Positions 58,930-63,603 are shown, counted from the stretch's first letter. The stretch: 64,000 bases of DNA from Marinobacter panjinensis (GCF_005298175.1 NZ_SZYH01000001.1:310001-374000); one strand, 5' to 3'. Numbers and translations are program-made. The notes: a model not told the origin generated them from the letters alone.

Positions 58930-59005
58930 GCGGGAATAGCTCAGTTGGTAGAGCACAACCTTGCCAAGGTTGGGGTCGCGAGTTCGAATCTCGTTTCCCG
59001 CTCCA
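58930..59005 (+). tRNA. tRNA-Gly(GCC)
   Basis: 76-nt cloverleaf. Acceptor GCGGGAA pairs with TTCCCGC, discriminator T, encoded CCA. The anticodon loop TTGCCAA gives GCC; the T arm has GAGTTCGAATCTC. It stands 66 bp before tRNA-Cys, likely co-transcribed. Confidence 0.98.
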
Positions 59006-59071
59006 ATCAACACAGTCTCTCAATGCCCACCTGAGAGCATAAAAGTGTCGAATCCCCTTCGAACTTTTACC

Positions 59072-59145
59072 GGCGCGGTGGCAGAGTGGTTATGCAGCGG
59101 ACTGCAACTCCGTTAACGCCGGTTCGATTCCGACCCGCGCCTCCA
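59072..59145 (+). tRNA. tRNA-Cys(GCA)
   Basis: 74-nt cloverleaf. Acceptor GGCGCGG pairs with CCGCGCC, discriminator T, encoded CCA. The anticodon loop CTGCAAC gives GCA; the T arm has CGGTTCGATTCCG. The accessory region with gene debris starts immediately after it. No clear terminator is seen. Confidence 0.98.
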
Positions 59146-59276
59146 TTATTTTTCCATCTACTTATTCCCCCAAGCAATTCTTCACTTGCTTGCGTCTGTC
59201 GACGCTTGATTCGACCCTGAGCTGTTTTCCTGAAATCTGATGCATCGACTCCAGGCGCCCCTGCAGAAACACCTGA

Positions 59277-59654
59277 ATCACTACCTTTGACTGTTTTTTA
59301 GAAGCTTCGCTTGAAGTGGATGAGCAGCTACGGCCGGGAACCTTCAGCCGGGGCACCGAGCTTGGGCTGATCACCGATCTGAGCTTTGGCGCCCGGGAAC
59401 AGATGGGCCTCATCAGCCATCTGGCCTATTCCGATCTGCTGCGGGAAGCAGGAAGGCCAACGCTGGTGATCCTGGACGACACCCTGGTGCGCAGTGATAG
59501 CGACCGCCTGGAAGACATGAAACGCATCCTGTTCGATGCGGCCAGTCGACATCAGATAGTGCTGTTTACTTGCCATCCAGAGAAATGGCAGGACCTGAGC
59601 GTGCCGCCTGTGGCTATTCAGGCATCGAAGGAACAGCGAACTCAGCCCCTGTAG
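59277..59654 (+). pseudogene. C-terminal remnant of a large AAA/SMC-like ATPase
   Basis: About 125 codons follow an in-frame TGA at 59274. The peptide contains TDLSFGAREQMGLISHLAYS (an ABC/SMC-type signature), then LVILDDTLVRSDSDRLEDMK (Walker B and D-loop) and IVLFTCHPEKWQDL. This is the end of a RecF/SMC/YhaN-like ATPase, usually a protein of 700-900 residues. Walker A and all coiled coil are missing. A GTG at 59316 could start a short product, but the lack of an N-terminus makes it a relic. Its junction with unrelated sequence lies near 59298. Confidence 0.75.
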
Positions 59655-59760: not shown

Positions 59761-62700
59761 ATGAAGGATACGCTGGCCTATTACAACAACAATGCCGATG
59801 CGTTTGTGGAATCAACGTTTCTGGTCAGCATGGAAGAGCTTTACCAGGAGTTCCTGCCGCAAGTTCCTAACGGTGGACACATTCTTGATGCGGGCTGTGG
59901 CTCTGGCCGGGATGCATTGTTCTTCAAGCAGAAGGGTTACCGTGTTTCTGCGTTTGATGGTTCAGACGCCATCGCCTCTCTAGCCCGCGAAAAGACCGGC
60001 TTATCGGTTCAGCATCGCTATTTCTCGGATATATACGAATCCAGTACTTACGATGGTATATGGGCCTGTGCAAGCCTCCTTCACTTGCCACTTGCCGAGG
60101 TACCCGAAGCCATTGGCCGATTGTGGCGTGCCCTGAAACCGGATGGCGTTCTCTACATGAGTTTCAAAATTGGGAAGGGGGAACGCAACCACAATGGCCG
60201 GCACTTTACCGACGCTGATGAATCGATAACCCAGCAGTGGATTCAGGACCTGACGGGATTGGAAGCCTGTCGGATGTGGCGCACTGATGACCAACGACCC
60301 GATAGGAATGAGCAGTGGTTGAACATTCTTTTGACCAAGGTGCCGGTTTCACCGGATAAGTTAACTACGGGCGGTAAAGAACATCATTTTTTGCCGAAAT
60401 TGTGCCAGGCAATTAAAGCTGCTGATCAGGTAGATATGGCAGTAGCGTTTGTAAAAACCACTGGCTTGAATCTCCTGTTCCCGGATTTGGTGGGCGCGCT
60501 GCAGCGGTCCCCTGATCCGGCCCGAATCCGCATTCTCACCAGCGATTATCTGGATATTACCGACACAGAGGCCCTTCGAAAGCTTGTTCTGTTGCATGAC
60601 CATGGTGCCAAAGTGCGTGTCTATCAGAGCAAGGGGAGTAGCTTTCATCTGAAAGCCTATCTCTTCGCTGGTCATGCCGAGAATCAGCAAATGTGGGGCA
60701 GGGCGTTTATCGGCTCCAGCAATATCAGCCGACAAGCGCTTCAGGCCGGGTTGGAATGGAATTATCAGGTGGATTTCCCGCCCGACTCTGGGTACCTCGA
60801 GGCTGCCAGCAGGTTCGATGAACTGTTTCAGCACCCAAACGTGGTGCCACTCACTGACAACTGGATCGATGATTACGAGAAAAGGAGGAAGCCACCAGAA
60901 CAGTCACTGGAACCAGGCAGTGATGAGAAGCAGGAAGTTCCAACACCTAATGAAGTGCAACAGGAAGCGCTAGAGGCGCTGGATCTGACCCGCCAAGAGG
61001 GTTACCGAAGAGGTCTGGTCGTGTTGGCAACGGGGCTGGGTAAAACCTGGTTGTCTGCCTTTGATGCCGTGCAAATGGGCGCACGCCGAATTCTGTTTGT
61101 CGCCCACCGTGAGGAAATTCTTTATCAAGCGGCTGAGACGTACCTGCGGATCAAGCCGAATAGCCGTGTTGGTTTTTACATGGGTAAGCAGCGCGATCGA
61201 ACAGTGGACATCCTTTGTGCTTCGGTGCAAACACTCGGCAAAGAAACGCATCTGGACCGATTCGACCCCCGGCATTTTGACTATATCGTGGTCGATGAAT
61301 TTCACCATGCCGCAGCACCCATCTACCATCGGCTTTTAAGTTACTTTGCGCCCCAATTTCTGCTGGGATTAACGGCAACCCCAGACCGGACAGACCGCTC
61401 GGATATTCTGTCGTTGTGTGACGACAACTTGGTTTTCGAATACCCGCTGTTTGACGGTGTTAAGGGCCAATTCCTGGTGCCGTTTCATTACTACGGTATC
61501 TACGACGAGACGGTCGACTATGCTGAGATCCCCTGGCGCAACGGAAAGTTCGATCCCAATCTGCTTGCCAATAAGCTGGCTACTTATGGACGCGCCAAAC
61601 ACGTTCTCAAAGTATGGAGTGAAGAGAAGCAAAGCCGGACCTTGGCCTTTTGCGTTTCACGGGTTCATGCTGATTTTATGGCGAGCCAGTTTGTAAAAAA
61701 AGGAATCAGGGCGGCAGCCGTTCACGGTGAATCTGAGATGTCTCGTGGCGAAGCCTTGGAGAATTTGGAAAACGGTCAACTCGATGTGATTTTCTCTGTC
61801 GACCTGTTCAACGAGGGTGTCGACCTGCCCGCCATTGATACGGTGCTGCTCTTGCGCCCGACGGAATCCAAAATCCTGTTTCTTCAGCAAATTGGCCGGG
61901 GTCTACGGAAAAGCGTGCCCACTGGGAAAGACAAGCTCGTGATCCTGGATTTTGTGGGTAACCACCAGAGTTTCCTGCATAAACCTCAGGCCCTCATTGG
62001 CCAGGCGATGAATCACCGACAATTAGCCGAGTTTGCCAGGAAAGCTGAAAAGAATCAGTTGGACCTGCCAGACGGATGCTTTATCAATTACGATCTGGAG
62101 GTGATCGACTTCCTGAAGGGTCTTGATCATCAGGGCGCTGAAAAAGACTATCAGGTATTGAAAGATACATTGGGTCGTCGTCCAACACTCAGCGAGTACT
62201 ATCGTTTCGGTGCCAGTATCGCTAAAACTCGCAAGTTGCACGGAAGCTGGTTTGGATTGGTTCGGGACATGGAAGATCTCGCCGAGATTGAGGCAGAACT
62301 ATTGTCCCGCTACGAAACGTTTCTGCTGGAAGTTGAAACGACGGCCATGAGCAAATCGTTCAAAATGATATTGCTAGACGCGTTCCAGCAGTTAGGCGGA
62401 TGGCGTAGTCCACCAAAGCTCTCAAAACTGGCCCAAACATCCTGGGAGACACTGAAACGCCGCCCCAGGCTTTATCAAGAAATTGCTACTTCAGTGAAGG
62501 ACGCGGATGGTTCCTCGGCGCAATGGCAGCAATACTGGAAGAAGAACCCAGTCGATCATTGGACCAATAAGTCGCCAGCTGTTTTTGAGATCGAGAACGA
62601 TCAATTTAAGCCTGTTATTGGGCTGGAAGGTGAGCAGATACCGCCTTTCGAGGAGATGGTGCAAGAGTTAATTGATTATCGTCTGGCTTCCTACGAAGCA

Positions 62701-63603
62701 CGGCAATCTTCCAAGCAAGAGCAGTCTTCGTCTGAAAATGTAGTCCCGGTCACTCCTTCTGGAGCGGAGTTGCCTTACTTCCCATCCTTGAAGATCGCGT
62801 GTGGCCACTTTAGAAGCAGTAACGCTGAAGAACCGGAGTACAGGTCCGTCGGATTGGGTCATGGGCGAATAGAGCCAACTCGCCATTTCATTGCCAGAGC
62901 TTCGGGTAACTCCATGAATGGCGGAAAGCAGCCGATCCAAGACGGTGATTATCTGTTGCTTGAGCGGATCAAGCCGAATCAGGCTGGATCGATAACAGAC
63001 AACACGCTTGCGATTGAACGGATGGATGAGACAGGCGACACGCAATATCTTCTTCGGACGGTTCGTAAATCCCCCGTAGGTGAATATCGGCTCGAAGCTG
63101 CTAATCCAGAGTATGAAGACATTATTGTAACTCCAGAGCTTCTAGAACAGTTTCGAACGTTCGCACGCTTTCGTGAAATTATCGATCCATTGGAAATGGC
63201 TCTCGGACAGGAAATCCCGCGAGAGGAGATTCCGGAGCTATTCGGAGTGACTTTTAATCCCGGCAATTGGCAAAGCGGTCACGTCTTTCTGAAAGATGCG
63301 AATGCGCATGTTTTGCTTGTAACGTTAAACAAGCAGGGCAAAGGGGTCCAGCACCGCTATGTCGATCATTGGATTGATGAGCAAACATTTCATTGGCAGA
63401 GTCAGAACTCAACCACGCCTCAAAACAAGCGCGGTCGGGAACTGGTCGAACACAAAAAGCTTGGACTCTCAGTGCACCTATTTGTCCGCGAGAATAAGCT
63501 GCGTAATGGCAAAGCTGCGCCCTTCACGTATTTTGGTCCAGTTGAATACCAGAGCCATGAAGGTAGCAATCCAATGAGTGTGATATTCAAGCTCAGGAGT
63601 TAG
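59761..63603 (+). CDS. methyltransferase-PLD-SF2 helicase-S24-DUF3427 fusion protein (candidate defence protein)
   Basis: 1280 residues from the ATG at 59761 (AAGGGA ahead). Residues 1-195 are a class I SAM methyltransferase (LDAGCGSGRD at 42-51), without DNA-methylase NPPY/DPPY. Residues about 205-375 resemble a PLD domain (SSFHLKAYLF near 294-303, FIGSSNIS near 316-323). Residues about 400-730 are an SF2 helicase: Walker A ATGLGKT (423-429), DEFHH (512-516), GLTATPDRTD (from 535), QQIGRGLRK (709-717). About 1010-1140 resemble a LexA/S24 domain (ASGNSMNGG, Ser1051). The C-terminus (about 1150-1280: HRYVDHWIDEQTFHWQSQN, in parts) is DUF3427-like. AT-richer codon use and position after tRNAs and debris suggest transfer. 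Confidence 0.85.
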   Translation: MKDTLAYYNNNADAFVESTFLVSMEELYQEFLPQVPNGGHILDAGCGSGRDALFFKQKGYRVSAFDGSDAIASLAREKTGLSVQHRYFSDIYESSTYDGIWACASLLHLPLAEVPEAIGRLWRALKPDGVLYMSFKIGKGERNHNGRHFTDADESITQQWIQDLTGLEACRMWRTDDQRPDRNEQWLNILLTKVPVSPDKLTTGGKEHHFLPKLCQAIKAADQVDMAVAFVKTTGLNLLFPDLVGALQRSPDPARIRILTSDYLDITDTEALRKLVLLHDHGAKVRVYQSKGSSFHLKAYLFAGHAENQQMWGRAFIGSSNISRQALQAGLEWNYQVDFPPDSGYLEAASRFDELFQHPNVVPLTDNWIDDYEKRRKPPEQSLEPGSDEKQEVPTPNEVQQEALEALDLTRQEGYRRGLVVLATGLGKTWLSAFDAVQMGARRILFVAHREEILYQAAETYLRIKPNSRVGFYMGKQRDRTVDILCASVQTLGKETHLDRFDPRHFDYIVVDEFHHAAAPIYHRLLSYFAPQFLLGLTATPDRTDRSDILSLCDDNLVFEYPLFDGVKGQFLVPFHYYGIYDETVDYAEIPWRNGKFDPNLLANKLATYGRAKHVLKVWSEEKQSRTLAFCVSRVHADFMASQFVKKGIRAAAVHGESEMSRGEALENLENGQLDVIFSVDLFNEGVDLPAIDTVLLLRPTESKILFLQQIGRGLRKSVPTGKDKLVILDFVGNHQSFLHKPQALIGQAMNHRQLAEFARKAEKNQLDLPDGCFINYDLEVIDFLKGLDHQGAEKDYQVLKDTLGRRPTLSEYYRFGASIAKTRKLHGSWFGLVRDMEDLAEIEAELLSRYETFLLEVETTAMSKSFKMILLDAFQQLGGWRSPPKLSKLAQTSWETLKRRPRLYQEIATSVKDADGSSAQWQQYWKKNPVDHWTNKSPAVFEIENDQFKPVIGLEGEQIPPFEEMVQELIDYRLASYEARQSSKQEQSSSENVVPVTPSGAELPYFPSLKIACGHFRSSNAEEPEYRSVGLGHGRIEPTRHFIARASGNSMNGGKQPIQDGDYLLLERIKPNQAGSITDNTLAIERMDETGDTQYLLRTVRKSPVGEYRLEAANPEYEDIIVTPELLEQFRTFARFREIIDPLEMALGQEIPREEIPELFGVTFNPGNWQSGHVFLKDANAHVLLVTLNKQGKGVQHRYVDHWIDEQTFHWQSQNSTTPQNKRGRELVEHKKLGLSVHLFVRENKLRNGKAAPFTYFGPVEYQSHEGSNPMSVIFKLRS

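What the first reader, a model, noticed from the sequence alone, without database searches (positions are those of the whole stretch)
59761..63603. Five-module 1280-residue fusion: methyltransferase, PLD nuclease-like, SF2 helicase, S24-like and DUF3427-like in one chain
The sequence shows intact motifs for SAM binding, a PLD-like HxK/GSSN pair, a full SF2 helicase set and two C-terminal modules. PLD-helicase-DUF3427 proteins are known as a domain family. A methyltransferase welded to the front and a LexA-like module inserted before DUF3427 look unusual. The methyltransferase lacks DNA-methylase motifs and resembles small-molecule or TehB-like enzymes, so this is not a classic restriction-modification enzyme. 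A helicase plus nuclease plus a LexA-type sensor in a single gene downstream of tRNAs suggests a stand-alone anti-phage or DNA-damage response system (inference).
Basis: partly seen in the sequence, partly recalled or inferred. Interest (0 to 1): 0.88.

Follow-up and report, generated by a model that had tools for sequence, protein, structure and literature searches.

The report
SauUSI-like restriction enzyme with extra modules
This single bacterial gene looks like a DNA-cutting immune enzyme that attacks foreign DNA carrying chemically modified bases, and in dozens of bacterial groups it carries two extra parts, a methyltransferase and a disabled-looking SOS-type protease domain, whose roles are unknown.

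Summary
Window 59761-63603 (+) is one intact 1280-residue ORF in a Marinobacter genome: class-I SAM methyltransferase, PLD nuclease, SF2 ATPase, helical coupler, UmuD/LexA-fold (S24) domain, and a C-terminal DUF3427 half that is an SRA modified-base reader. PLD-SF2-coupler-SRA is the architecture of SauUSI, a Type IV restriction enzyme, so the core is a new variant of a known kind. The fusion is not an error: 71 loci carry it in one frame, from Marinobacter and Pseudomonas to Thauera, Limnohabitans and Desulfuromonadales. New here: (1) nearly every evaluable S24-bearing homologue has a methyltransferase, fused or in an adjacent gene, and a distant S24-less SauUSI-like clade also has one next door (22 of 22 in this genus), so the pairing arose more than once. 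(2) The S24 domain keeps the nucleophile Ser and a UmuD-like Cys-Gly site, but the catalytic Lys is Arg in about 100 homologues, so a working LexA-type self-cleaving sensor is not supported. (3) Marinobacter genomes with the gene carry fewer cytosine-C5 methylases (4/26 vs 34/71, p=0.004, phylogeny uncorrected), and one broken copy adjoins such a methylase gene. Best reading: modification-dependent anti-phage/anti-plasmid nuclease; roles of the two extra modules unknown.

The parts
59761..63603 (+). complete CDS, 1280 aa, MTase-PLD-SF2-coupler-S24-SRA
59761..60342 (+). class-I SAM methyltransferase module (RPA2492/TehB-like); SAM motif I DAGCGSGRD at 59887-59913; no DPPY or PCQ motif
   Evidence: Pfam; hmmsearch 3e23 E 7e-39; Foldseek 3e23 TM(target) 0.91
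60343..60918 (+). PLD-family nuclease module; HLK at 60646-60654, GSSN at 60712-60723
   Evidence: PLDc_2; Foldseek to the SauUSI nuclease domain; motifs
60928..61992 (+). SF2 helicase-like ATPase (GLGKT, DEFH, TATP, QQIGRGLR)
   Evidence: ResIII and Helicase_C; SauUSI 7clg phmmer 8.6e-86 over residues 206-760
62005..62697 (+). mostly helical coupler linking ATPase to the C-terminal modules
   Evidence: AlphaFold helices, pLDDT mostly 77-94; counterpart of the SauUSI coupler 618-805 (PMC7913695)
62752..63162 (+). S24 (UmuD/LexA-fold) domain: ACG at 62797-62805, SGNSM at 62902-62916, Arg of QYLLR at 63055-63057 in the place of the dyad Lys
   Evidence: Pfam PF00717 in 32/32 members; UmuD 8gmt
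63193..63600 (+). SRA modified-base reader (C-terminal half of DUF3427); pocket counterparts D1208 and W1218 invariant, H1180 in place of SauUSI Tyr831
   Evidence: Foldseek SauUSI, SUVH6, MspJI, ScoMcrA, SUVH5; hmmsearch 7clg 1e-8 with alignment
59237..59654 (+). remnant (last ~130 of 879 codons, frameshifted, no start) of an SMC-like AAA ATPase gene that is full length directly upstream of the gene or of its operon in sister species
58930..59145 (+). tRNA-Gly(GCC) and tRNA-Cys(GCA) just upstream, a probable integration site
   Evidence: same tRNA pair in L048, L054, L058

Best explanation
The gene encodes a single-chain, ATP-dependent, modification-dependent (Type IV) restriction nuclease of the SauUSI kind. 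Proposed cycle: the C-terminal SRA domain flips out a modified cytosine in incoming phage or plasmid DNA; the coupler passes the signal to the SF2 motor; the motor translocates; the PLD domains of a dimer cut the DNA near the site. Shown here by sequence and fold comparison: the module order, intact nuclease and ATPase motifs, the SRA fold and two pocket residues. Inferred from SauUSI biochemistry (PMC7913695): the catalytic cycle. The methyltransferase is a conserved functional partner rather than cargo, because it occurs fused or as an adjacent gene; I think it most likely modifies or licenses the complex or its target in a SAM-dependent way and is not a classical protective DNA methylase (about 0.45). 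The UmuD-like domain most likely acts as a non-cleaving regulatory or docking domain between motor and reader (about 0.5), because the dyad Lys is Arg.
For: PADLOC Type IV REase 1.9e-109 and 7e-83. SauUSI crystal chain 7clg is the best PDB match for the core and for the SRA module by profile and by fold. SauUSI domain layout and chemistry: PMC7913695. Marinobacter genomes with the intact gene carry PF00145 C5-cytosine methylases less often (4/26) than genomes with neither form (34/71), Fisher p 0.0045. In G139 only a fragment of the gene's C-terminus survives, and a C5-methylase gene with a Vsr-like gene lies about 0.2-0.5 kb beyond it. Neighbour proteins hit 81 and 116 PADLOC families (95 and 97 proteins) against 4 for 46 control proteins; HmaA and GajB-like neighbours. 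Methyltransferase partner: 71 fused and 9 in a separate adjacent gene among 86 S24-bearing loci, and 22/22 in S24-less SauUSI-like loci of the genus, two of them degraded; tree.
Against: No cleavage data for any member. The residue corresponding to SauUSI Tyr831, proposed to contact the methyl group, is an invariant His, so the recognised base may not be m5C. The C5-methylase depletion is not corrected for phylogeny and ignores site specificity; four genomes hold both genes. The neighbourhood comparison counts model families, not proteins. The presence of a methyltransferase is atypical for Type IV systems.
Confidence: 0.75

Rival explanations
1. The S24 domain is a live, UmuD/LexA-type self-cleaving switch: on DNA damage or motor stalling the chain is cut at Cys-Gly between coupler and reader, separating the SRA reader from the nuclease and turning restriction off (built-in restriction alleviation) or on.
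For: Cys-Gly is present in 99 of 102 aligned members and the Ser in 101, both aligned to the UmuD cleavage site and nucleophile. The domain sits exactly between motor/coupler and reader. The neighbouring Schlafen-type helicase in sister species carries an S24 domain with apparently intact Ser, Lys and Ala-Gly.
Against: The general-base Lys is Arg in the profile-profile alignment and in about 100 members; no LexA boxes upstream (7 near-matches, 7.45 expected).
Confidence: 0.15
2. The methyltransferase makes a DNA mark and the nuclease reads it or is blocked by it: a restriction-modification system in one chain, or a two-gene pair in relatives.
For: The methyltransferase accompanies the nuclease in fused, upstream, downstream and convergent arrangements, as modification enzymes do; the SAM-binding DAGCG core is invariant in 34 members.
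Against: No DPPY/PCQ motifs; nearest solved relatives are 3e23 (unknown function), small-molecule and TehB enzymes; close stand-alone relatives have no such nuclease within the fetched flank (L217-L219); most S24-less SauUSI-like proteins outside the genus lack it.
Confidence: 0.2
3. Housekeeping DNA repair or recombination enzyme rather than immunity.
For: Weak helicase similarity to RadD/YejH; a UmuD-like domain.
Against: Patchy: 26 of 124 genomes of the genus and 15 of 369 in the class sample by the S24+SRA query; variable sites next to different tRNAs; broken copies; Type IV restriction best match.
Confidence: 0.05
4. Acts only together with the SMC-like AAA / MazG / Schlafen-helicase operon found upstream in sister species, so the window copy is a decaying orphan.
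For: Conserved order in L047, L048, L049, L051, L064 and partly in L057, L061; the window keeps only the AAA tail.
Against: The other homologues examined carry the gene without this operon; the window ORF is intact and shares the family's conserved motifs.
Confidence: 0.1

Closest known systems
SauUSI (PDB 7clg), Type IV restriction enzyme of Staphylococcus aureus; Pfam DUF3427 proteins
   Same: PLD nuclease, SF2 ATPase, helical coupler and SRA reader in one chain and the same order; D858/W868 pocket counterparts kept
   Different: extra N-terminal methyltransferase, extra S24 domain between coupler and SRA, Tyr831 to His, about 330 residues longer
Own-genus SauUSI-like proteins of about 1010-1090 aa (L006-L027)
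   Same: PLD-SF2-coupler-SRA core with an RPA2492-like methyltransferase gene directly downstream (22/22, two degraded)
   Different: no S24 domain, methyltransferase not fused, distant branch of the helicase tree
UmuD / LexA (Peptidase S24)
   Same: fold family, SGxSM nucleophile motif and a Cys-Gly dipeptide before it
   Different: Lys of the dyad is Arg; embedded in a nuclease-motor; no LexA box upstream
RPA2492 (PDB 3e23) and TehB-like SAM methyltransferases
   Same: fold and SAM motif; HMM E 7e-39 to 3e23
   Different: fused to a restriction nuclease; substrate of this module and of RPA2492 unknown

Membership tests
SauUSI-type Type IV restriction enzyme | PLD nuclease with HxK and GSSN motifs | tested here: met
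SauUSI-type Type IV restriction enzyme | SF2 helicase-like ATPase directly after the nuclease | tested here: met
SauUSI-type Type IV restriction enzyme | C-terminal SRA target-recognition domain | tested here: met
SauUSI-type Type IV restriction enzyme | methyl-cytosine pocket residues Tyr831, Asp858, Trp868 | tested here: inconclusive
   Asp and Trp invariant, Tyr replaced by invariant His
SauUSI-type Type IV restriction enzyme | ATP-dependent cleavage of m5C/hm5C DNA only | not testable with these tools
   indirect support only: C5-methylase depletion
Classical DNA restriction-modification enzyme | DNA methylase catalytic motif (DPPY-like or PCQ) | tested here: not met
   absent from the module; no DNA-methylase Pfam hit
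LexA/UmuD self-cleaving (S24) proteins | Ser nucleophile in the SGxSM motif | tested here: met
   101/102
LexA/UmuD self-cleaving (S24) proteins | general-base Lys | tested here: not met
   Arg at that position by hhalign and in the family alignment; MAFFT misplaced LexA in this stretch
LexA/UmuD self-cleaving (S24) proteins | Cys/Ala-Gly cleavage site before the Ser | tested here: met
   CG in 99/102, aligned to UmuD
LexA-regulated SOS genes | LexA box upstream | tested here: not met

The most novel reading that the evidence does not exclude
A large family of Type IV restriction nucleases carries its own UmuD-derived switch between motor and reader, plus an obligate SAM methyltransferase partner, so that modification-dependent restriction is turned on or off inside one chain by damage, stalling or SAM state; this would be a self-contained form of restriction alleviation that I found described nowhere.
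Probability: 0.2. Interest if true: 0.82.

Novelty: new variant of a known kind. Interest (0 to 1): 0.6.

Why it matters
Type IV restriction enzymes are usually thought of as stand-alone cutters. A lineage spread over Beta- and Gammaproteobacteria and some Desulfuromonadales that nearly always travels with a non-DNA-type methyltransferase and an SOS-derived domain implies an unrecognised layer of control over how bacteria cut modified DNA without harming themselves. The pairing with a methyltransferase is seen in two distant branches, which makes the methyltransferase a testable functional partner. These enzymes may also be barriers to transformation in Marinobacter, Pseudomonas, Azotobacter and Thauera.

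Tried and rejected
Sequencing-error or adjacent-gene fusion artefact: rejected. LexA regulation: no boxes. Phage-borne origin: no relatives in viral contigs (one search likewise for the Schlafen-type S24). Structure of the S24 domain by AlphaFold: only low confidence (pLDDT mostly 52-78), so the Ser-Arg geometry could not be read, and the whole chain (over 1200 aa) could not be folded. Automatic MAFFT alignment of LexA against the family put the Lys region wrongly; hhalign against eight Lys-bearing S24 domains was used instead. Reciprocal test from the methyltransferase side: close stand-alone relatives occur with no PLD-helicase in the fetched flank, so the methyltransferase family is not exclusive to this system. 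Literature searches for the architecture gave no description in the held library; in the SauUSI paper and the Type IV and modified-base reviews, searches for the relevant terms found no mention of it. The AAA remnant gives no Pfam hit on its own and was identified only through sister genomes.

Full report
Observation. The ORF at 59761-63603 is intact and 1280 residues long. GC of the gene is 51% against 58% for the rest of the window, as expected for an acquired gene. The genome is a Marinobacter by inference: the closest named relatives of the gene are in M. orientalis, M. sediminum and M. koreensis.

What the modules are. SauUSI (PDB 7clg) is the best solved match for residues 206-760 (8.6e-86), and PADLOC's best match is a Type IV methyl-directed restriction enzyme (1.9e-109). 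In SauUSI the C-terminal domain (806-953) is an SRA fold, modelled to flip 5-methylcytosine, and is joined to the ATPase by a helical coupler (PMC7913695). The matching part of this protein has the same fold: an AlphaFold model of residues 750-1286 finds SauUSI, SUVH6, MspJI, ScoMcrA and SUVH5 SRA domains, and a profile of 32 members hits SauUSI at 1e-8. In that alignment SauUSI Asp858 and Trp868 correspond to invariant D1208 and W1218, while Tyr831 corresponds to an invariant His (H1180). Residue numbers count from the in-frame TTG; subtract 6 for the ATG.

The fusion is a family trait. In the genus, about 26 of 124 genomes carry this form and 22 a shorter SauUSI-like form; none carries both. 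A scan of 84,980 species genomes with the S24+SRA profile, which contained no methyltransferase, found 325 relatives; of the 80 kept, 66 match all six blocks in one ORF. Including other loci, 71 are fused in frame. Hosts include Marinobacter, Alcanivorax, Pseudomonas, Azotobacter, Ectothiorhodospira, Thauera, Azoarcus, Limnohabitans, Accumulibacter and Desulfuromonadales.

The methyltransferase is a separable partner. Among 86 S24-bearing loci, 71 have it fused and 9 have it as an adjacent gene: upstream (L045, L067, L107, L166, L168, L169) or downstream on the opposite strand (L133, L139, L167). Six show none: four are at or near contig ends (L084, L086, L101, L214), one has a truncated ORF (L113), and one looks like a real exception (L100). 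The Aeromonas locus L068 also has it upstream, but no S24 match. All 22 S24-less SauUSI-like loci of the genus have a related methyltransferase directly downstream, 20 full and 2 degraded. Outside the genus most S24-less members lack it. On a tree of the ATPase module the separate-gene state needs at least three changes on well-supported branches, and the two methyltransferase-bearing lineages lie in distant clades. Repeated pairing implies function (inference). The enzyme resembles RPA2492 (3e23) and TehB, not DNA methylases. Close stand-alone relatives exist with no such nuclease in the fetched flank, so the methyltransferase family has other lives.

The S24 domain is probably not a working protease. 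It is strongly conserved (mean column identity 73% in 32 diverse members), with a Cys-Gly dipeptide in 99 and the nucleophile Ser in 101 of 102 sequences. Both align to the UmuD cleavage site and nucleophile. But the general-base Lys is Arg: a profile-profile alignment with S24 domains that do have Ser, Lys and Ala-Gly (the Schlafen-helicase neighbour and an HNH protein) puts R1105 opposite the Lys. MAFFT with LexA misplaced this stretch, so the point rests on hhalign and on manual reading and needs a structure. There is no LexA-box enrichment upstream.

Context. The gene lies after tRNA-Gly/tRNA-Cys. Three sister species have it near the same tRNA pair, others near different tRNA or tmRNA genes, so it looks mobile rather than housekeeping. 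In seven sister loci an operon precedes it, complete or partly eroded: SMC-like AAA ATPase, MazG-like protein, Schlafen-group-3 helicase with an S24 tail. The window keeps only the AAA tail, frameshifted (59237-59654). In L036 and L054 the full AAA gene sits directly upstream. Neighbour proteins hit 81 and 116 PADLOC families against 4 in a control set half that size. This is a family count, not a protein count, but it agrees with individual neighbours such as HmaA, a GajB-like helicase and a second SauUSI-like gene in L107. The Pseudoalteromonas plasmid copy lies beside an ABC-three-component system.

Indirect test of specificity. If the enzyme cuts m5C DNA, host C5-cytosine methylases should be rare beside it. 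In the genus 4 of 26 genomes with the gene carry PF00145, against 34 of 71 without either form (p 0.0045); the shorter form gives 7 of 22 (p 0.22). In G139 only a C-terminal fragment of the gene remains, next to a C5-methylase gene and a Vsr-like gene ('Vsr-like' is read from the sequence, not tested). Phylogeny and site specificity are not controlled, so this is supportive, not decisive.

Verdict. A SauUSI-type modification-dependent restriction nuclease: a new variant of a known kind. What is new is the conserved methyltransferase partnership and the inserted, apparently non-catalytic UmuD-like domain. Their roles are inference. No description of this architecture was found in the held literature, which lacks most subscription journals.

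Noticed in passing
L047:3097-8583 (also L048, L049, L051, L064; partly L057, L061): Operon of SMC-like AAA ATPase, MazG-like protein and Schlafen-group-3 helicase with a C-terminal S24 domain that keeps Ser, Lys and Ala-Gly, directly upstream of the five-module gene in sister Marinobacter; candidate defence operon with a possibly live self-cleaving domain.
   Followed up: partly
L165:1390-3063: 558-aa HNH_4 nuclease with a C-terminal S24 domain with Ser, Lys and Ala-Gly; a second case of an S24 tail on a probable defence nuclease.
   Followed up: no
L038:7974-11668 (G139): Remnant of the five-module gene beside a C5-cytosine methylase gene and a gene with a Vsr-like N-terminus: an m5C system next to a broken m5C-type restriction gene.
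   Followed up: partly
   Followed up: no
L079/L064 (Marinobacter similis): The five-module gene is frameshifted inside the methyltransferase module, and the upstream AAA gene is also spread over three frames.
   Followed up: no
L219:4643-8670: Stand-alone relative of the methyltransferase followed by two co-directional genes (309 and 847 aa) of unknown family.
   Followed up: no
L107:4900-12146: Rhodocyclus purpureus carries the S24-bearing gene immediately followed by a second, S24-less SauUSI-like gene on the same strand.
   Followed up: no
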